In this document: one piece after another, positions 1,711 through 9,721 of the stretch
How the letters are laid out: each line of letters starts with the position of its first letter
Numbering within the stretch: position 1 is the stretch's first letter
Source: Bacteroidota bacterium
GTDB lineage: Bacteria > Bacteroidota > Bacteroidia > Bacteroidales > B39-G9
Reading direction: 5' to 3'
DNA: 9,721 nucleotides
NCBI GenBank assembly: GCA_003648455.1
Contig: QMPG01000094.1
Coordinates: forward strand, 1-9,721
The notes under the pieces: model-generated
The model's input: only the letters and a program-made list of their open reading frames with translations
What the model was told of the DNA's origin: nothing
Database searches by the model: none
Made by a program: the position numbers and the translations under genes

Positions 1711-1721
1711 ATTATTTGTTT

Positions 1722-2078
1722 ATGGAATATATTAGTTTAATAACCGGCTTTATAATGCTCATGATTGGGCTTTGGGGCATTTTGACTCAAAAAAATATTA
1801 TAAAAATAATAATTAGCTTTACAATTTTTGATTCTGCCATAAATATAATTATTATTAGTATAGGTTATATTAGTGGCAGAACAGCACCAATACTCGATAA
1901 AGCAGTTCCTGTTAAAGATGCAGTTACAAAAATTGTTGACCCAATACCTCAAGCTCTTGTCTTAACATCAATTGTTATTAGTTTGGGAGTAACAGCCTTA
2001 ATGCTTGCTTACGCATTAAAACTTCACAAATATAAAAACACATTAGAAATTAATAAGTTTAAAGATTTAAAATGGTAG
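1722..2078 (+). CDS. mrpC: Na+/H+ antiporter subunit MrpC/MbhG (NuoK-like)
   Basis: A 118-residue, three-helix protein homologous to MrpC and NuoK. The hallmark is DPIPQALVLTSIVIS (about 73-87), entering helix 3. The loop before it (SGRTAPILDKAVPVKDAVTK) is longer than in NuoK, as in MrpC/MbhG. An upstream TTG at 1716 is in frame and would add two residues, but the ATG at 1722 gives the normal MrpC N-terminus and is preferred; neither has a recognisable Shine-Dalgarno sequence. The stop overlaps the next start by 7 bases. Role: membrane subunit of the cation-translocating arm, next to the MrpD-type antiporter domains. The basic tail (KLHKYKNTLEINKFKDLKW) is probably cytoplasmic. Confidence 0.92.
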   Translation: MEYISLITGFIMLMIGLWGILTQKNIIKIIISFTIFDSAINIIIISIGYISGRTAPILDKAVPVKDAVTKIVDPIPQALVLTSIVISLGVTALMLAYALKLHKYKNTLEINKFKDLKW

Positions 2079-5000
2079 CACCTATTTATATTATTGCGAT
2101 TTCTCTTGGTATAGCTTTTTTGATTGGTATTTTTCGAAAAAGCAACAAGAATGTTAGCGGAATGCTCATGCTTTTAGCTCTTGCTTGTATGAGTTTTATT
2201 TCTGCTCAATGGTTTATCTCTTTTATGACTTCAACTCAAAGTCCCGAATATATTTATACTGCAGGATTTAAACCACCGTTTTCTATTAATTTATTGATGG
2301 GCTTAAACGAATCGTTTTTCACATTAATAATAAATTTAGCTGCATTTTTAGGAGCTATTTATCTTTATAATGACCTCAAGAAACAAGGCACCAATGCAAT
2401 GTCTGTATTCTTAGGATTTGCTATGGCATTGAATGTTATGGTAATGACACGAGACATATTTAACTTATATGTTTTTCTTGAAATTGTTAGTGTAGCAACT
2501 GCAGGGCTTATTATTCTCGATAAAGGTTTAAAATCTACATCCGCAGGTTTTAAATATATGATAGCTACAGGTATTATTTCAAGTTTATTACTGATAGGAA
2601 TTGTTTTTGCATATAATTATTCAGGCACACTAAATATTGACGGATTGATAAATGCTAATATTGGTGTTTTGAAAGGAGGAGCAATAGCAATATTCTTAAT
2701 TCTTATAGCAATTGTTCTTGAATTAAAACCCTTTCCTGCAAATGGCTGGGCTCTTGATGTTTATCAGGCAGCTAATCCCGGTATCACCGCATTGATTTCA
2801 GCAGCAAGTGCTTCTGCTTCGTTTTATGTCTTATATAAATTACTGCCTATTGCAGGTGAAGCATGGTATCCTGTTATTGCTGTTTTAGGAATAATTACTT
2901 TTTTCAGTTCAAACCTATTAGGAATTAAACAAACTAATTCAAAACGATTGCTTGGTTATTCTTCAATAGGTCAAATAGGGTTGCTGTTAACCGTATTGGG
3001 ATTAAGTCCTCATTTAGGTAATAATTTCAAATTCATAATTTTCGGATTATTAATATCTCATTATTTTGCAAAAGCAGGATTATTCTGGTTGTCCGGAATA
3101 ATTAAGACTGAAAATATTAGAGATTGGGCTGCTATTCGTAAGAAACCATTTCTTTTGTTTTTTATGGGCACGTTTATTTTTGCCTTAGTAGGATTTCCTC
3201 CATTTCCATCATTTTTTGCTAAATGGCAATTAATTATGAGTTTGTCTAATGTTGGAATGTATGGCTGGGTGGTAGCTATTCTTTTAGGATCACTTTTCGA
3301 AGGAGTTTATCTTTTCCGTTGGTTTGGTTATGCAATGAAATTAGATAACGAAAAACTACCGTCATTTAAAGTGCCGGCTAATAAAATAATTCCGGTGGCT
3401 TTGTTCGCTTTATCAATTTATGTTGTTGGCTATTTCAGCTCAAGCATGATTGAAGGTGGTAGCACAATTAATTATATACCATTGTTCTTTGTTGCTTTTT
3501 TATTTTTAATTGATTTTTTACCCGTAATAATAAAAAATTCTATTGCAATTGCAGGAGTTGCTTATTATGCATATAACTTATTGCCCTCATTATATGATGA
3601 TAAGCTTAGATTTATCTTTGGTGTAATTTTCCTTATTGGAGGTATTATTTTACTTATACCGGGGTACTCACAGAAAGGTAAGCGTAAAGGTTTTTATCCT
3701 TTTGTGATATTGATGTATGCAGGTTTAATAGGTCTTATTGAAGCATCAAATATTTTGCAATTCTTTTTTGCTTGGGAATTAATGACAATGGGCTCATATA
3801 TTTTAATTATCAGAGGTAAAAAATCAATGCCTCACGGGTATAGTTATATGTTGTTTTCAATTGGTGGTGCTTATGCAATTTTAGCAGGTCTGGGTATTGC
3901 TCATGCCGGCCAAGCTTTATTGTCTCTCAATATTTTGAGTACTGTTACAATGTATGCCCCTTGGGTTTATGTTTTGCTTGCAATTGGTTTTATGACTAAA
4001 ACAGCTGCTGTAGGATTTCATATTTGGTTACCAGGAGCTCATGCTGAAGCAGAATCTGACGTATCCCCAATGGTTTCCGCTATTCTTTTAAAAGCTGGTG
4101 TTTTTGGTTTTGTTGTTTTAATGCTTGCAATGCGAACTCAATCTAATATATATCCAATTGCATACGCTTTAGGCTGGCTTGGTGCAATTACAGCTTTAGT
4201 TGGTAATTTAAAAGCCTCTTTTCAGGAAGATGCTAAAAGATTATTGGCTTGGTCTAGTATTGGTCAATTAGGATACATATTATTTGCTTTAGCTTTTATG
4301 ACAAATCTTGGTTGGTTAACGGCTATGACATATTCAATTAATCACTTTTTATATAAATCTTTATTATTCCTTGCTATTGGCGGTGTAGTTCTTAGAGTTA
4401 GAACTCATAATATGTACGAAATGGGAGGTCTGATTAAGAGAATGCCGTTCTCTTTTGTTGCTGTCCTTATAGGTATAATTGCTTTGGCAGGAATACCTCC
4501 TTTATCAGGATTTGCAGGTAAATGGTTGTTCTATAATGCTATTGTATTAAAAGGCTGGTATCTACAAGGTGTAATAATGTTTTTCTCTGGAATAATTGCT
4601 TTCCTCTATTGCTTTCAGTTGATTAATTCTGTTTTCTTAGGACAATTAAAGGATAAACACAGGCATGTAAAGGAAGCATCAATCTGGTTTCTAATACCCG
4701 AATATATTTTAATTGCAGGAATAATGTTTTTTTCTGTAAAACCGGGAGTTATTTTAAAACCAATAGGAGATTATCTTGCACAGTATTTCCCAAATAATGT
4801 CCTTCATTGGGTAGGTAATACAGCATATAGCCCATTAGGATACTGGAATGCCACAGCTATTATACAAGTTGTTGGAGTAATGTTTGTTGTGTTAATTCTA
4901 TGGTTGCTTCTTGTTAATAGAAGAAATACAAAAATCAAACAATTTAATATGGTTTATGCAGGAGAACGCCCATTTAGACCGGAATTGACTCATAATGCTT

Positions 5001-5194
5001 ATAATTTATATTCCGGATATTATAAAGGGGTGTGGTTTTTTGTAATACCATGGGTAACATATTGTTGGGATTCTATTGCAGATTTTACAAAAGCATCTTC
5101 AGATTTTTTAAGAAGAATATATAATGGCAATGGACAAAGTTATGCCATGCATATTATTTTATTTGTAGCTACAGTTTATTTTTTATTATTTTAG
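2072..5194 (+). CDS. mrpD: Giant fused antiporter subunit: two MrpD/MbxH domains plus MbhI-like tail
   Basis: A 1040-residue polytopic membrane protein, about twice the usual MrpD/NuoN length. Domain 1 (about 1-500) has E137 in NLYVFLEIVS, E217-L-K219, SSIGQIG at 297-303 and GFPPFPSFFAKW (374-385, K384). Domain 2 (about 505-900) repeats the fold: E569 in FFFAWELM, K643 in GFMTKTAAVGFHIWLP, H657, K674 in ILLKAG, SSIGQLG at 728-734 and GIPPLSGFAGKW (807-818, K817). These are antiporter-type charged residues of the complex I/Mrp family. The tail (about 925-1040) has a membrane helix, a WVTYCWDSIADF amphipathic stretch, the sequence YNGNGQSYA (1017-1025) and a last helix, matching the lateral-helix subunit MbhI. 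Mbx complexes have two MrpD-like subunits where Mbh has one; here they share one chain. No stop or frameshift interrupts it. Role: Na+/H+ translocation. Confidence 0.9.
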   Translation: MVAPIYIIAISLGIAFLIGIFRKSNKNVSGMLMLLALACMSFISAQWFISFMTSTQSPEYIYTAGFKPPFSINLLMGLNESFFTLIINLAAFLGAIYLYNDLKKQGTNAMSVFLGFAMALNVMVMTRDIFNLYVFLEIVSVATAGLIILDKGLKSTSAGFKYMIATGIISSLLLIGIVFAYNYSGTLNIDGLINANIGVLKGGAIAIFLILIAIVLELKPFPANGWALDVYQAANPGITALISAASASASFYVLYKLLPIAGEAWYPVIAVLGIITFFSSNLLGIKQTNSKRLLGYSSIGQIGLLLTVLGLSPHLGNNFKFIIFGLLISHYFAKAGLFWLSGIIKTENIRDWAAIRKKPFLLFFMGTFIFALVGFPPFPSFFAKWQLIMSLSNVGMYGWVVAILLGSLFEGVYLFRWFGYAMKLDNEKLPSFKVPANKIIPVALFALSIYVVGYFSSSMIEGGSTINYIPLFFVAFLFLIDFLPVIIKNSIAIAGVAYYAYNLLPSLYDDKLRFIFGVIFLIGGIILLIPGYSQKGKRKGFYPFVILMYAGLIGLIEASNILQFFFAWELMTMGSYILIIRGKKSMPHGYSYMLFSIGGAYAILAGLGIAHAGQALLSLNILSTVTMYAPWVYVLLAIGFMTKTAAVGFHIWLPGAHAEAESDVSPMVSAILLKAGVFGFVVLMLAMRTQSNIYPIAYALGWLGAITALVGNLKASFQEDAKRLLAWSSIGQLGYILFALAFMTNLGWLTAMTYSINHFLYKSLLFLAIGGVVLRVRTHNMYEMGGLIKRMPFSFVAVLIGIIALAGIPPLSGFAGKWLFYNAIVLKGWYLQGVIMFFSGIIAFLYCFQLINSVFLGQLKDKHRHVKEASIWFLIPEYILIAGIMFFSVKPGVILKPIGDYLAQYFPNNVLHWVGNTAYSPLGYWNATAIIQVVGVMFVVLILWLLLVNRRNTKIKQFNMVYAGERPFRPELTHNAYNLYSGYYKGVWFFVIPWVTYCWDSIADFTKASSDFLRRIYNGNGQSYAMHIILFVATVYFLLF

Positions 5195-5205: not shown

Positions 5206-6108
5206 ATGAGTTTTATAGTTAGGTTAGCTTATACTTTATTAGGATTATTTATTGTGCTAAATTGGGGTTTAATTCAAACCGGATTGATGAATAAAATTAC
5301 TGCGAGAGTAGGTAAAAGATTTGGAATGCCTTTTTATCAACCATATCTTAATTTAGTTATGCTATATTCGAGACGTTCATCTGTTTCGCATGGAGTGATG
5401 TTTTATCTTGGTCCAATTTTTCGTCTTGCCGGTGGTGTAGGAATATTCTTATTTTTACCTTTAATTTATGGTTCTATATACTGGACAAATTTTTCTTTTT
5501 CAGGAGACCTCGTTTTAATTTTATATTTTCAGTTTTTTGGAATGCTTGGTATGGCTCTTGGTGCAGGCGAAGCAAGTCACCCATATTCTATAATTGGAAT
5601 TGGTAGAGGTTTGTCTCAAGTTACAACTGTTGAGATTCCTTTTACTCTTGCAATTATTTCTATTGCTGTACAATATCATACATTGTCTCTTGCCGACATT
5701 GTTGCTGCCCAACAAGGAGGAATAACTCATTGGGTAATGTGGACCAATCCATTTGCAACAGCTGCAGGTATGTTGGCATTTTTAGGATTTATGAGACACT
5801 CACCTTTCGATACCGTTATGGCTCCTCAAGAAATACCTATTGGACCACCAACTGAATATCACTCAGCTTTTCTTGGAGTGTTAAGATCTAATGCAGCAAT
5901 ATTACATGTTGTAGAATCTGTTTTGTTTATGAATCTGTTTTTTGGTGGTGCTACATCTTGGGTCGAATTAATTATTAAAACCTTCTTTATTTATTTCTGG
6001 TCAGTTTTCGTCGGAGCTGTTACTCCTCGTTTTAGAATTGACCAATCGTCAAGATGGTTTTTGAAGGTGCCATTACTTTTAGGAATATTAGCAATTATTT
6101 TTATATAA
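5206..6108 (+). CDS. mbxM: NuoH/MbhM-like membrane anchor subunit
   Basis: A 300-residue protein with about eight membrane helices, homologous to NuoH, EchB and MbhM. It links the ion-translocating arm to the peripheral redox arm. Visible signatures: ARVGKRFGMPFYQPYLNL (33-50), the counterpart of the RxGPRFGxPxYQP loop of NuoH; GEASHPYS (121-128); GRGLSQVTTVEIPFTL (133-148) with E143; the long loop FDTVMAPQEIPIGPPTEYHS (201-220) with E209 and E217; and a C-terminal TPRFRIDQSSRW stretch (273-284). These acidic residues form the conserved charged path between quinone-like cavity and membrane arm in complex I. The start is fixed by AGGAGG seven bases upstream. The gap to the next gene is only 7 bases. 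Confidence 0.93.
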   Translation: MSFIVRLAYTLLGLFIVLNWGLIQTGLMNKITARVGKRFGMPFYQPYLNLVMLYSRRSSVSHGVMFYLGPIFRLAGGVGIFLFLPLIYGSIYWTNFSFSGDLVLILYFQFFGMLGMALGAGEASHPYSIIGIGRGLSQVTTVEIPFTLAIISIAVQYHTLSLADIVAAQQGGITHWVMWTNPFATAAGMLAFLGFMRHSPFDTVMAPQEIPIGPPTEYHSAFLGVLRSNAAILHVVESVLFMNLFFGGATSWVELIIKTFFIYFWSVFVGAVTPRFRIDQSSRWFLKVPLLLGILAIIFI

Positions 6109-6818: not shown

Positions 6819-7355
6819 ATGATGGAGCAAATATTGCAAGACATTAGTAAACAATTTGAAATAACGGATATTGTTAAGAAAAGAGATAATCTTAACTTTA
6901 TTACATGTAAAAAGGAACAAACAATTTCTTTAATTACTTATTTAAGAGATATTAAAGGATTTTCGCATTTTGTTTTATTATCAGTAGTTGATTGGATTGA
7001 AGATGGAGTTTTTCAACTCGTTTATTTCCTTAACAACCCTGAGAAAAAGATTGATATTGGAATAAGAACGATGATTTCCCGAGATAATGCAACAATGACA
7101 TCGGCTCACCATTTGTGGGAACAAATTGCTACATATCAACGTGAGTTAAAAGAAATGTACGGAATAGATTTTCCAGGAAGTCCACGTGTTGACGAATCAT
7201 TTATATTAGAAGGATGGGATGATATTCCCCCTATGAGAAGAGAATTTGATACTAAAAAATATTCTGAAGAAACTTTTTTCCCAAGAGAAGGTAGAGAAAC
7301 AAATGATCCTGAAGAATATATGAAAAAAAAGCTATACCCAGATGAAGAAAAATAA
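6819..7355 (+). CDS. mbxK: NuoC/MbhK-like subunit
   Basis: A 178-residue soluble subunit homologous to NuoC (30 kDa subunit of complex I) and MbhK/EchD. The family signature is the stretch around W100: LWEQIATYQRELKEMYGI (99-116) followed by DFPGSPRVDESFIL, then EGWDDIPPMRREF (131-143). The N-terminal half has the usual mixed alpha/beta fold preceding it, with SVVDWIEDG at 55-63. The C-terminal 35 residues are highly charged. It has no redox cofactor; it supports the assembly and interface of the NuoB- and NuoD-like subunits. Two ATG codons in tandem (6819 and 6822) are possible starts and neither has a clear Shine-Dalgarno site. The gene overlaps the NuoD-like gene by 14 bases, which implies translational coupling. 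Confidence 0.92.
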   Translation: MMEQILQDISKQFEITDIVKKRDNLNFITCKKEQTISLITYLRDIKGFSHFVLLSVVDWIEDGVFQLVYFLNNPEKKIDIGIRTMISRDNATMTSAHHLWEQIATYQRELKEMYGIDFPGSPRVDESFILEGWDDIPPMRREFDTKKYSEETFFPREGRETNDPEEYMKKKLYPDEEK

Positions 7356-8535
7356 AAACGTTTTATGGTCACCGGATAGAAGTAAATTCCCTGAAAAAAA
7401 TCCAGATGGGAGCTTAAATGTTGATTTATCATCAGAAAAATATGTTAAAGTTTGGCATGGACCAAACCACCCCGGTGTAACAGGAAATATGTCATTAGAA
7501 CTTACAATCTGTGGTGATGAAATTGTTCAGGCAAAAACTCATGTTGGTTATCTTCATCGCGGGTTTGAAAAGTTGATAGAAAGACGCAAGTTTATTCAAG
7601 GTTTTACTACATGTATTCGTATGTGTGTTGCTGAACCGGATTCAAATGAATACAATTTTTCACGATGTGTTGAAGAATTATCAGGTATTGAAGTCCCTGA
7701 AATGGCCAATTGGTTAAGAACTCTTGCACTTGAAATGTCTCGCTTGCAAATGCTGTTAAGAATTGTGCCGGGTCAAGGTAATGCAACAGGCTTAGGTATG
7801 GGAGTACAATGGGGTATTTATCTTAGAGATTTAATTCTTGACAGATTTGAAGAACTAACAGGCGGTCGTGTTTATCATATGTATATTACTCCGGGAGGTG
7901 TCAGAGGTTTGTTACCCGATGGTTTTAAAAAACGCATGGAAGACACATTGGACAAAATTGATGCTTTTATTGGCAATATTACTAAATTAATGTATGATAA
8001 TGCTGTCTTCAAAAAACGAACTGTTGGTGTTGGATATTTAGATCCTTCATGGGTTGATAAATTTGGCGTTGGTGGTCCAAATGCACGTGCTGCAGGATTT
8101 AAACGTGATGTTAGAAAAGATTATCCTTATTTAATTTATGATAAATTAGATTTTGAACCATATACAGCAACAGATTCTGATATTTATACTCGCTCATTAG
8201 TTAGACGCGAAGATATCAGAACAACCGTTGATATTATTCGTCAGATATTAGCAAAAATGCCTGATAAGGGAGATATAAGAGCACAAACACCAAATGTTTT
8301 ACACTGGAAAATACCAAAAGGAGAAACATATGTGAGAAGCGAATCTTCACGAGGAGAATATGGATATTATATGGTAACCGACGGAAGTGAGTTCCCAAGA
8401 AGAATTAATTTAAGAGGACCAAGTTATGTACATGCAGTATCACTTCTTGAGAAAATGCTTATTGGAGCAAATATTGCTGATGTTGCATCAATGATGGTTT
8501 CTCTTGCAGCTTGTCCTCCTGAAATTGAAAGATAA
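7342..8535 (+). CDS. mbxL: NuoD/MbhL-like catalytic subunit without NiFe ligands (Mbx/Mbs type)
   Basis: A 397-residue protein homologous to NuoD and to the large subunit of group 4 [NiFe] hydrogenases. Family signatures: WHGPNHPGVTGNMSLEL (38-54), GYLHRGFEKLIE (69-80) and the C-terminal IADVASMMVSLAACPPEIER. Hydrogenases bind NiFe with two CxxC motifs. Here the first is CIRMC (C91, C95; CxxxC) and the second is reduced to C391-P-P-E394. There is also no C-terminal extension of the kind removed during hydrogenase maturation. The second His of the NuoD HPxxHG quinone-site motif is Thr47. The combination fits Mbx/Mbs, described in Pyrococcus as a ferredoxin-dependent sulfur/polysulfide-reducing Na+ pump, and argues against a hydrogenase or quinone reductase. 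The true electron acceptor here is not shown by the sequence. The next internal Met is at residue 50, so the first ATG is the start. Confidence 0.92.
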   Translation: MKKNKNVLWSPDRSKFPEKNPDGSLNVDLSSEKYVKVWHGPNHPGVTGNMSLELTICGDEIVQAKTHVGYLHRGFEKLIERRKFIQGFTTCIRMCVAEPDSNEYNFSRCVEELSGIEVPEMANWLRTLALEMSRLQMLLRIVPGQGNATGLGMGVQWGIYLRDLILDRFEELTGGRVYHMYITPGGVRGLLPDGFKKRMEDTLDKIDAFIGNITKLMYDNAVFKKRTVGVGYLDPSWVDKFGVGGPNARAAGFKRDVRKDYPYLIYDKLDFEPYTATDSDIYTRSLVRREDIRTTVDIIRQILAKMPDKGDIRAQTPNVLHWKIPKGETYVRSESSRGEYGYYMVTDGSEFPRRINLRGPSYVHAVSLLEKMLIGANIADVASMMVSLAACPPEIER

Positions 8536-8585: not shown

Positions 8586-9721
8586 ATGAGTTTAAAAGAT
8601 ATATTAACTCCATTTATAAAGTGGGAAAATGTTGTTAAAGAGCCCATAACGATTAAAGACCCTATTAACGATAGACCCGGGGCTCCCAGATATCGTGGTT
8701 TTCATAAAAATGATATTACAAAGTGTATAGGTTGTGGCTCATGTGAAGATATTTGCCCCAATAAAGCAATAGATTTAGTTCCTGTTGAAGGAATTGAAAC
8801 CAAAGACGGAGATAGCGGACTTCGACCAAAAATTGATTATGGCAGGTGTTGCTGGTGTGGCTTATGTGTTGACGTTTGTACTACCGGCTCTCTTAGTTTG
8901 TCTAATGAATATAAATGGATTGAAGAAGCGAGTGCTGATGCTTATAGATTTATACCGGGCGTTGATAAAAAACCTTGGGATGAAAATGAATTAGGTTGGA
9001 AAAAACCAACGCCTAATTATGAATTTTATGATCTTAAACGAGTTGAGATGCCGGAACTTGTGCCTGAGAAAAGAGATAGTTCCTTTGTTGAAATTGTTCA
9101 GGGTTACTCAAAAGAGCAAGCTCAACTAGAAGCCGACCGTTGCGTTGAATGTGGTATTTGTGTTGCTACTTGCCCTGCTCATATGGGAATTCCAGCTTAT
9201 ATTAAAGCTATTCGTGACGATGATTTAGAACATGGTCTGGAAGTATTATATGAGACAAATCCATTACCAGAAATTTGCGGACGTATTTGTACTCATAAAT
9301 GCGAATCCGTTTGTTCTCTTGGTCATAGAGGTGAGCCTTTATCAATACGTTGGTTAAAACGATATATTGCCGATCAAAATCCTTCTGAAAATTATAAGAA
9401 GATTTTAGAAACAGAAAATATTGAAAAAAATGGGAGAAAAGTTGCAATAATTGGTTCCGGTCCATCAGGATTATCAGCTGCATATTATCTTGCTTTATTG
9501 GGCTATGAAGTGAAAATTTTTGAATTATATCCCGAAGCTGGTGGTATGATGCGTTACGGAATACCCGAATATCGTTTGCCTTATGATCAAATAGATAAAG
9601 ATATTAATTATATTTTATCTCTCGGTGTTGAAATTCAGTATAACACAAGAGTAGGTGTTGATGTTTCTTTGGAAGAGTTAAAGAAAAATTATGATGCTGT
9701 ATTTGCCGGTACAGGTCTTCA
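8586..9721 (+). CDS. NuoI/MbhN-like ferredoxin fused to GltD/NfnB-like FAD oxidoreductase, 3' end missing
   Basis: The frame is open for 378 codons from ATG 8586 to the window edge. Residues 1-110 form an MbhN/NuoI-type domain with two 4Fe-4S motifs: C47xxC50xxC53xxxC57P and C88xxC91xxC94xxxC98, the latter lacking the usual Pro. After a 60-70 residue linker rich in Trp, Pro and charged residues comes a GltD-like Fe-S domain: C186xxC189xxC192xxxC196P, then NPLPEICGRICTHKC with C231, C235, C239 and C243. An FAD-binding Rossmann motif follows, G290-S-G292-P-S-G295 with E313 closing it, then AGGMMRYGIPEYRLP (318-332), a hallmark of glutamate synthase beta, NfnB and DPD-like flavoproteins. The NAD(P)H-binding half lies beyond the window. 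Expected role: pass electrons between ferredoxin, the complex core and NAD(P)(H). The fusion is seen; the nucleotide link is inferred. Confidence 0.9.
   Translation, partial: MSLKDILTPFIKWENVVKEPITIKDPINDRPGAPRYRGFHKNDITKCIGCGSCEDICPNKAIDLVPVEGIETKDGDSGLRPKIDYGRCCWCGLCVDVCTTGSLSLSNEYKWIEEASADAYRFIPGVDKKPWDENELGWKKPTPNYEFYDLKRVEMPELVPEKRDSSFVEIVQGYSKEQAQLEADRCVECGICVATCPAHMGIPAYIKAIRDDDLEHGLEVLYETNPLPEICGRICTHKCESVCSLGHRGEPLSIRWLKRYIADQNPSENYKKILETENIEKNGRKVAIIGSGPSGLSAAYYLALLGYEVKIFELYPEAGGMMRYGIPEYRLPYDQIDKDINYILSLGVEIQYNTRVGVDVSLEELKKNYDAVFAGTGL

What the first reader, a model, noticed from the sequence alone, without database searches (positions are those of the whole stretch)
8586..9721. 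MbxN-type ferredoxin subunit fused in frame to a GltD/NfnB-like flavoprotein
One open frame joins a two-cluster NuoI/MbhN-like domain (C47-C57, C88-C98) to a GltD-type module with eight more cysteines (C186-C243) and a GxGxxG FAD site (290-295). In known Mbh/Mbx complexes, MbhN/MbxN is a small stand-alone polyferredoxin that accepts electrons from soluble ferredoxin. Hard-wiring a pyridine-nucleotide-type flavoprotein onto it would let the ion-pumping complex exchange electrons with NAD(P)(H), or possibly bifurcate at the flavin as NfnB does. I recall that a gltD-like gene lies next to the mbx-like cluster of Thermotoga maritima, so association may be older than this fusion, but I cannot confirm it here.
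Basis: partly seen in the sequence, partly recalled or inferred. Interest (0 to 1): 0.8.

Follow-up and report, generated by a model that had tools for sequence, protein, structure and literature searches.

The report
Sulfur-reductase ion pump with NAD(P)H arm
A membrane ion pump related to respiratory complex I, of the kind that archaea drive with ferredoxin to reduce sulfur, here carries a permanently attached flavin enzyme half that should let NADH or NADPH drive it; the joined gene is real and found in several bacterial phyla, but its function is untested.

Summary
One frame from 8586 to the window end joins a two-cluster NuoI/MbsN domain to a GltD-type flavoprotein. Relatives 90-94% identical complete it (598-599 aa) and supply the missing NAD(P) Rossmann domain. 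It is no artefact: 83 full-length copies (81 distinct) keep all 17 cysteines, and 80 of 80 with enough upstream DNA follow the NuoD-like gene. NCBIfam already holds the architecture (PRK13984, 'putative oxidoreductase'); Thermotoga maritima scores over its cut-off.

Two points change the interpretation. First, J and L are closest to the sulfane reductase MBS and keep its three-cysteine catalytic cluster; a complete NiFe ligand set is found in 0 of 83 L proteins. Second, the flavin module is not NfnB: it lies outside the NfnB clade, has the lysine of non-bifurcating StnC where NfnB has glutamate, and no NfnA-type gene was found nearby.

Best reading: an NAD(P)H-driven, ion-pumping sulfane reductase, a quinone-free analogue of complex I with an independently gained nucleotide-oxidising arm. 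An 'RR' form (NADPH-like) and an 'LE' form (predicted NADH) exist, sometimes in one genome. Donor, acceptor and pumping are inferred, not shown.

The parts
8586..9721 (+). Fusion gene, NuoI/MbsN domain + GltD-type flavoprotein (378 of about 599 codons in the window)
   Evidence: completed in L002 and L001
8724..8756 (+). Residues 47-57: C47, C50, C53, C57 of the NuoI-type [4Fe-4S] pair
   Evidence: present in 83 of 83 fusions
8847..8879 (+). Residues 88-98: C88, C91, C94, C98 (and C89) of the NuoI-type [4Fe-4S] pair
   Evidence: present in 83 of 83
9078..9386 (+). Fer4_20 helical domain (residues 165-267) with eight Cys for two more [4Fe-4S] clusters
   Evidence: PF14691 105.5 bits; Cys present in 83 of 83
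9357..9359 (+). Codon of K258, aligned with StnC K170 (Glu cluster ligand in NfnB)
   Evidence: K in 83 of 83 fusions, E in 4ylf_B; meaning from PMC10482914 passages
9453..9470 (+). GSGPSG FAD site (residues 290-295)
9573..9575 (+). Codon of R330, aligned with StnC R239 and the NfnB Arg near FAD N5
   Evidence: R in 83 of 83
7342..8535 (+). MbsL/NuoD-like subunit; keeps C95 and C391 (MbsL C85/C385), has no C-x2-C pair at either site, and has T47/V96 at the complex I His/Tyr positions
   Evidence: 6u8y_L 289.8 bits against 198.7 complex I and 122.7 MBH
6819..7355 (+). MbsK/NuoC-like subunit
   Evidence: PF00329
6116..6790 (+). MbsJ/NuoB-like subunit with the three-Cys proximal cluster (C75, C140, C170)
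   Evidence: 6u8y_J 217.6 bits against 132.3 for the best NDH/complex I chain and 95.7 MBH; Cys counts
5206..6108 (+). MbsM/NuoH-like membrane anchor
   Evidence: PF00146
2072..5194 (+). Two antiporter-like subunits (MbsH and MbsH' type) fused in one 1040-aa protein
   Evidence: two Proton_antipo_M stretches; NCBIfam halves
1716..2078 (+). MnhC/NuoK-like subunit
   Evidence: PF00420
1006..1710 (+). MbhE + MnhB-like subunit
   Evidence: PF20501, PF04039
765..1013 (+). MbhD-like subunit
   Evidence: PF13244
388..768 (+). MnhG-like subunit
   Evidence: PF03334
125..385 (+). MnhF-like subunit
   Evidence: PF04066

Best explanation
The window holds most of an MBS-type respiratory complex whose electron-input subunit has become a NAD(P)H dehydrogenase by fusion. 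Proposed working: NAD(P)H gives a hydride to the FAD of the GltD half. Electrons leave one at a time through its two [4Fe-4S] clusters, then the two NuoI/MbsN clusters, to the three-cysteine cluster of subunit J at the J/L interface. There they reduce a sulfane-type sulfur compound (polysulfide or a relative), and the loop system shared with complex I drives the antiporter-like and Mrp-like membrane arm to build a Na+ or H+ gradient. Shown here: domain order, cluster ligands, operon, closest relatives, conservation, one clade for the fusions. Inferred: electron direction, acceptor, pumping, and cofactor (NADH for the LE form, to which the window's nearest relatives belong; NADPH for the RR form).
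Against: No activity is known for any member. The NADH-polysulfide potential gap is small (potentials recalled), so an NADH-driven pump has little driving force; the LE form may need ferredoxin as well or run in another direction. LE-means-NADH is weak: a GltD of the TIGR01317 family (L081) also has Glu in the matching stretch, while a GltD structure of the PDB is named 'Glutamate synthase (NADPH) small chain' (7mfm; that it is of the same TIGR01317 family is recalled). The model gives no cluster distances, so the wire between the halves is not shown. The two residual L cysteines are lost in part of the family (C95 in 64, C391 in 53 of 83), and 15 of 83 L have Cys at 92, 95 and 391, so the site varies more than in one solved MBS. 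No sulfur gene was identified beside the operon; of the neighbour clusters five were annotated.
Confidence: 0.55

Rival explanations
1. Ferredoxin still feeds the NuoI clusters and the flavoprotein is the exit: a ferredoxin:NAD(P)+ oxidoreductase, Rnf-like in function.
For: MBS takes electrons from ferredoxin; PMC6349859 (passages) states that P. furiosus Mbx is a ferredoxin:NADP+ oxidoreductase that may pump. The fusion would give that reaction a site.
Against: Electrons going from ferredoxin to FAD would not pass the J/L site, where complex I-like enzymes couple, so pumping would be unexplained, yet the three J cysteines are kept in 74, 74 and 73 of 74.
Confidence: 0.15
2. Flavin-based bifurcation or confurcation at the GltD FAD, as in NfnB.
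For: The GltD half resembles NfnB in fold; the Arg near FAD N5 is kept in 83 of 83.
Against: Glu ligand of NfnB replaced by Lys in 83 of 83, as in non-bifurcating StnC; fusions fall outside the NfnB clade; no PF10418 hit within 200 kb of the fusion on the same contig in 12 of 12 genomes, though many contigs are short.
Confidence: 0.08
3. A complex I-like NAD(P)H:quinone oxidoreductase with a GltD arm in place of NuoEFG.
For: Several host groups are expected to have menaquinone (recalled); the subunit set is complex I-like. Three of 83 L proteins have His at position 47.
Against: NuoB tandem CC absent, one Cys kept. In the alignment Nqo4 H38 and Y87 (quinone ligands, recalled) fall on T47 and V96 of L; T in 72 and V in 82 of 83. 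Best PDB match is MBS for J, L and the NuoI domain.
Confidence: 0.1
4. A group 4 (Mbh-type) [NiFe] hydrogenase, as such operons may be annotated in MAG papers.
For: PMC8542988 (passages) gives a group 4g Mbh for Ca. Zophobacter, among others; locus L051 is from Ca. Zophobacter. 15 of 83 L proteins, L051 included, have Cys at 92, 95 and 391, three of the four positions where hydrogenase ligands would align (C-x2-C spacing recalled).
Against: Cys at all four positions (92, 95, 391, 394) in 0 of 83; position 394 is Glu in 78, Asp in 4, Cys in 1. L051's L matches MbsL at 325 bits against 153 for MBH.
Confidence: 0.03
5. In Bacteroidota the GltD arm serves the DHOD-like flavoprotein encoded next door, as GltD and DHOD modules cooperate in dihydropyrimidine dehydrogenase.
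For: A PRK07565-type gene is directly downstream in 27 of 66 loci and second in one more (L026).
Against: Not next to the fusion in the closest relatives L001 and L002, nor in the two RR-type loci of that set, L054 and L055. In 12 genomes it is adjacent in 5, elsewhere in 11 and absent in 1.
Confidence: 0.05

Closest known systems
MBS, membrane-bound sulfane reductase of Pyrococcus furiosus (PDB 6u8y; PMC7684303)
   Same: Closest solved relative of J, L and the NuoI domain; three-Cys proximal cluster; two antiporter-like subunits plus Mrp-like module; the window keeps both residual L cysteines.
   Different: MbsN is a separate 208-aa chain fed by ferredoxin; here it is the N-terminal part of a flavoprotein. 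H and H' are one 1040-aa protein here.
StnC of the Sporomusa-type transhydrogenase (PDB 8oh5; PMC10482914)
   Same: GltD-type NADPH input module joined to an Fe-S wire, with the same Lys and Arg at the FAD/cluster.
   Different: StnC feeds the soluble bifurcating StnAB core; here the module feeds a membrane ion pump. StnC is outside the fusion clade.
NCBIfam NF010590 / PRK13984 'putative oxidoreductase'
   Same: Same full-length architecture, 611 positions; T. maritima over the cut-off.
   Different: L002's gene scores 902.7 bits, below the 946 cut-off; the model names no function or complex.
T. maritima MBX (PMC9431562, passages)
   Same: 13-subunit MBS homologue, mbxA up with sulfur.
   Different: The passages take ferredoxin as donor and mention no flavoprotein subunit; the listing counts no 'glutamate synthase' in the paper.
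NfnB / NfnL (PDB 4ylf, 5jca)
   Same: Fold and cofactor set of the GltD half.
   Different: Glu ligand, NfnA partner and clade not shared.

Membership tests
MBS-type sulfane reductase | Proximal cluster with three Cys in J | tested here: met
   C75 74/74, C140 74/74, C170 73/74; alignment to MbsJ
MBS-type sulfane reductase | J, L and N closest to 6u8y among solved structures | tested here: met
MBS-type sulfane reductase | Two antiporter-like subunits and Mrp-like module | tested here: met
   in the window the two are fused
MBS-type sulfane reductase | Stand-alone ferredoxin-accepting N subunit | tested here: not met
   N is fused to a flavoprotein in the window and in the 83 copies counted
MBS-type sulfane reductase | Polysulfide reduction | not testable with these tools
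   needs enzyme
Group 4 [NiFe] hydrogenase (MBH) | Four Cys (two pairs) for NiFe in L | tested here: not met
   window L has no C-x2-C at either site; complete set in 0 of 83, three of four in 15
Complex I (quinone type) | Adjacent CC in NuoB and His/Tyr quinone ligands in NuoD | tested here: not met
   roles of His/Tyr recalled
NfnB (bifurcating) | Glu ligand of the FAD-proximal cluster | tested here: not met
   Lys in 83 of 83; role
NfnB (bifurcating) | NfnA partner gene beside it | tested here: not met
   no PF10418 hit within 200 kb on the same contig in 12 of 12 genomes; several contigs are short
NfnB (bifurcating) | Arg at FAD N5 | tested here: met
   83 of 83; not specific, StnC has it too
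StnC-like GltD input module | Lys (K170) and Arg (R239) | tested here: met
StnC-like GltD input module | Grouping with StnC in a tree | tested here: inconclusive
   fusions form their own clade (0.996) without StnC, but the nodes joining it to other GltD families are weak, 0.32-0.40
NCBIfam PRK13984 | Full-length match | tested here: met
   L002 gene matches positions 4-608 of 611
NCBIfam PRK13984 | Score over 946 bits | tested here: not met
   L002 gene 902.7 bits; the window piece alone 575.9

The most novel reading that the evidence does not exclude
On the complex I scaffold, nucleotide oxidation was invented a second time. Complex I gained NuoEFG; this lineage fused a GltD module onto the N subunit of an MBS-type sulfane reductase. 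It then split into an NADPH form and an NADH form, so that one cell can run two dedicated, cofactor-specific ion-pumping sulfane reductases (RR and LE copies together in the assemblies G004, G008, G654 and G660).
Probability: 0.35. Interest if true: 0.8.

Novelty: new variant of a known kind. Interest (0 to 1): 0.62.

Why it matters
If true, bacteria of several phyla, and probably T. maritima, own a quinone-free, NAD(P)H-driven ion pump ending in sulfur. The T. maritima energy budget in PMC9431562 takes ferredoxin as donor of MBX, and MAG papers may call such operons H2-evolving group 4 hydrogenases. It would also be a second, independent way of giving a complex I-type machine a nucleotide-oxidising arm, and the donor question can be tested in a cultured organism.

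Tried and rejected
NfnB-type bifurcation: rejected on Lys/Glu, clade and missing NfnA neighbour. Quinone reading: rejected on ligand residues. Assembly error at the junction: rejected; 83 full copies. NADH from LE: kept only as likely, because L081 (TIGR01317) has Glu in the matching stretch and L082 lacks RR too. Passages of PMC6338057, PMC6085437 and PMC7414866 gave nothing on it; PMC6085437 does set MbxL apart from hydrogenases by the Cys pairs. PMC2246101 (one passage) did not describe TM1217; that this is the T. maritima gene is recalled. At the loose threshold the fusion model rings in 14 of 14 control genomes (over the cut-off in 1); at 1e-150 only T. maritima rings. The fold searches cover mainly residues 160-599; the NuoI half was not folded alone. 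Cluster distances were not available.

Prevalence at E 1e-150, the centre genome included: 2 of 296 in the phylum of G002, 13 of 296 in that of G012, 41 of 124 in that of G011; phylum names are read from locus titles only. Counts of 83 include both takes of L051/L088 and L043/L090; the 74 J proteins include L043 and L090 both. The tree used 25 of 69 LE copies, all 14 RR, 16 other GltD proteins and 5 PDB chains, rooted by me on NfnB.

Full report
What is there. The window is one operon on the + strand: MnhF, MnhG, MbhD, MbhE/MnhB and MnhC-like subunits, a 1040-aa protein with two antiporter modules, then NuoH-, NuoB-, NuoC- and NuoD-like subunits M, J, K, L. The last gene starts at 8586 and is still open at the end of the window. 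Its first 145 or so residues are a NuoI-type two-cluster domain; Fer4_20 and the beginning of an FAD domain follow. NCBIfam PRK13984 matches residues 2-378 in one stretch.

How common and how constant. 66 of 67 loci encode a relative; 60 hold a full fusion. All 17 cysteines are present in 83 of 83. The L gene is directly upstream in 80 of 80 copies with at least 450 bases of upstream sequence (one search counts 79 and reports none for L103; the map shows L there, the fusion frame having been called too long). In 38 of 40 loci with 8.7 kb upstream, matches to all ten other window genes were found on the same strand; L024 lacks the MnhG match and L038 the J match. Titles name Bacteroidales and other Bacteroidota, Spirochaetes, Cloacimonadota, Delongbacteria, Neomarinimicrobiota, Fermentibacteria and a deltaproteobacterium, among others. 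Of 14 control genomes only T. maritima is over the cut-off of the fusion model. The fusion is rare in the sampled phylum of G002 (2 of 296, G002 included) and common in that of G011 (41 of 124, G011 included).

What kind of complex. Among solved structures J, L and the NuoI domain are closest to MBS of P. furiosus: J 217.6 bits against 132.3 for the best NDH/complex I chain and 95.7 for MBH; L 289.8 against 198.7 and 122.7; the NuoI domain 92.2 against 56.2 for the next complex I chain. MBS has a proximal cluster held by three Cys of MbsJ, and the paper reports that the iron without Cys is needed for polysulfide reduction (PMC7684303, abstract and passages). The three Cys are kept in 74, 74 and 73 of 74 J proteins. 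The fourth, C25, not needed in MBS, is Gly in 65 and Cys in 9. In L the window has Cys at 91, 95 and 391 and Glu at 394, so no C-x2-C pair. Across 83 L proteins the full four-Cys set at 92, 95, 391 and 394 occurs in none, but 15 have the first three; C95 is kept in 64 and C391 in 53. The His and Tyr that bind quinone in complex I (recalled) align with T47 and V96, Thr in 72 and Val in 82 of 83, with His in 3. So neither a hydrogenase nor a quinone reductase is expected, though the L site varies.

What kind of flavin module. In a tree of GltD domains (25 of 69 LE copies, all 14 RR, 16 others, 5 PDB chains, rooted on NfnB) the fusions form one clade (support 0.996), separated from NfnB (0.974). 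One RR copy, L068, branches first; the other 13 RR copies (0.787) and the LE copies (0.884) are sisters, so RR may be older. The branching among other GltD families is poorly supported. The Stn paper (PMC10482914, passages) reports that StnC carries a GltD-type NADPH module whose FAD does not bifurcate, with Lys170 where NfnB has a Glu cluster ligand. That position (K258) is Lys in 83 of 83 fusions, and the Arg (R330) is kept. Lys is also found in 12 of the 15 other GltD proteins compared there, the fusion fragments L008 and L027 left out, so it marks non-NfnB GltD modules in general rather than StnC alone. In 12 genomes PF10418, the NfnA/PyrK-type iron-sulfur domain, occurs but never within 200 kb of the fusion on its contig. 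A one-way input module is therefore more likely than a bifurcating one.

Cofactor. NfnB binds the NADP phosphate with two conserved Arg (PMC6405883, section 8 part 1); that these are the RR of the YRR motif is my inference. 14 of 83 fusions have RR there; 69 have LE after a stretch six residues longer (eight in two copies). In the model the pair comes just after strand 445-448. The LE form, which the window's nearest relatives have (the window itself ends before this point), is thus predicted to prefer NADH, with the caveat of L081. Four genomes hold both forms at separate places: G004, G008, G654, G660; they are assemblies without names, so contamination cannot be excluded.

How it most likely works. 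NAD(P)H to FAD, two GltD clusters, two NuoI clusters, the J cluster, then a sulfane compound, with ion pumping through the membrane arm. Donor, acceptor, direction and pumping are inference from relatives. The main difficulty is energy: with potentials as recalled, NADH to polysulfide leaves little for pumping; NADPH or additional ferredoxin input would help. Ferredoxin may still dock, which would make the complex a two-donor machine.

What is known. The architecture is in a curated model and probably in T. maritima, so the fusion is not new as a sequence. The T. maritima paper (PMC9431562, passages) treats the 13-subunit MBX as ferredoxin-fed. In the listings of ten answered paper searches I saw no description of the fused subunit. 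I class it as a new variant of a known kind.

Noticed in passing
window 2072-5194: The two antiporter-like subunits (MbsH and MbsH' type) are one 1040-aa protein; similar lengths in the other complete loci, but two genes in L057 and L070.
   Followed up: partly
L038:11806-12789 and 27 other loci: A dihydroorotate dehydrogenase-like gene (PRK07565 type) follows the fusion: directly in 27 of 66 loci, second in L026; in 20 it overlaps or starts within 20 bases. Function unknown.
   Followed up: partly
L002 after 2940, L001 after 11797, and others: A CBS-pair protein follows the fusion in the closest relatives (cluster found in 19 of 66 loci); a rubrerythrin/ferritin-like gene in 6.
   Followed up: no
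L051 (Ca. Zophobacter franzmannii): PMC8542988 gives a group 4g Mbh for this genus in its text. The L subunit here has three of the four Cys positions (Glu at the fourth) and matches MbsL at 325 bits against 153 for MBH, so such an annotation may be wrong; which gene the paper meant was not checked.
   Followed up: partly
L042, L043, L045, L047, L051, L052, L068-L070, L088, L090, L096, L098, L100, L105: L proteins with Cys at 92, 95 and 391, possibly intermediates between hydrogenase and MBS ligand sets.
   Followed up: no
L022/L068, L047/L069, L088/L087, L090/L089: LE and RR copies in one genome; G354 and G563 have two LE copies each.
   Followed up: partly
L026 and L060: Broken frames in the fusion; in L026 the HH and M genes of the same operon are split too, so poor assembly or decay.
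   Followed up: no
L072-L075, L077-L080, L083, L084, L086: The same genomes carry other GltD domains in long frames of about 680 to 1490 aa; one (L079) has a NuoG match behind it.
   Followed up: no
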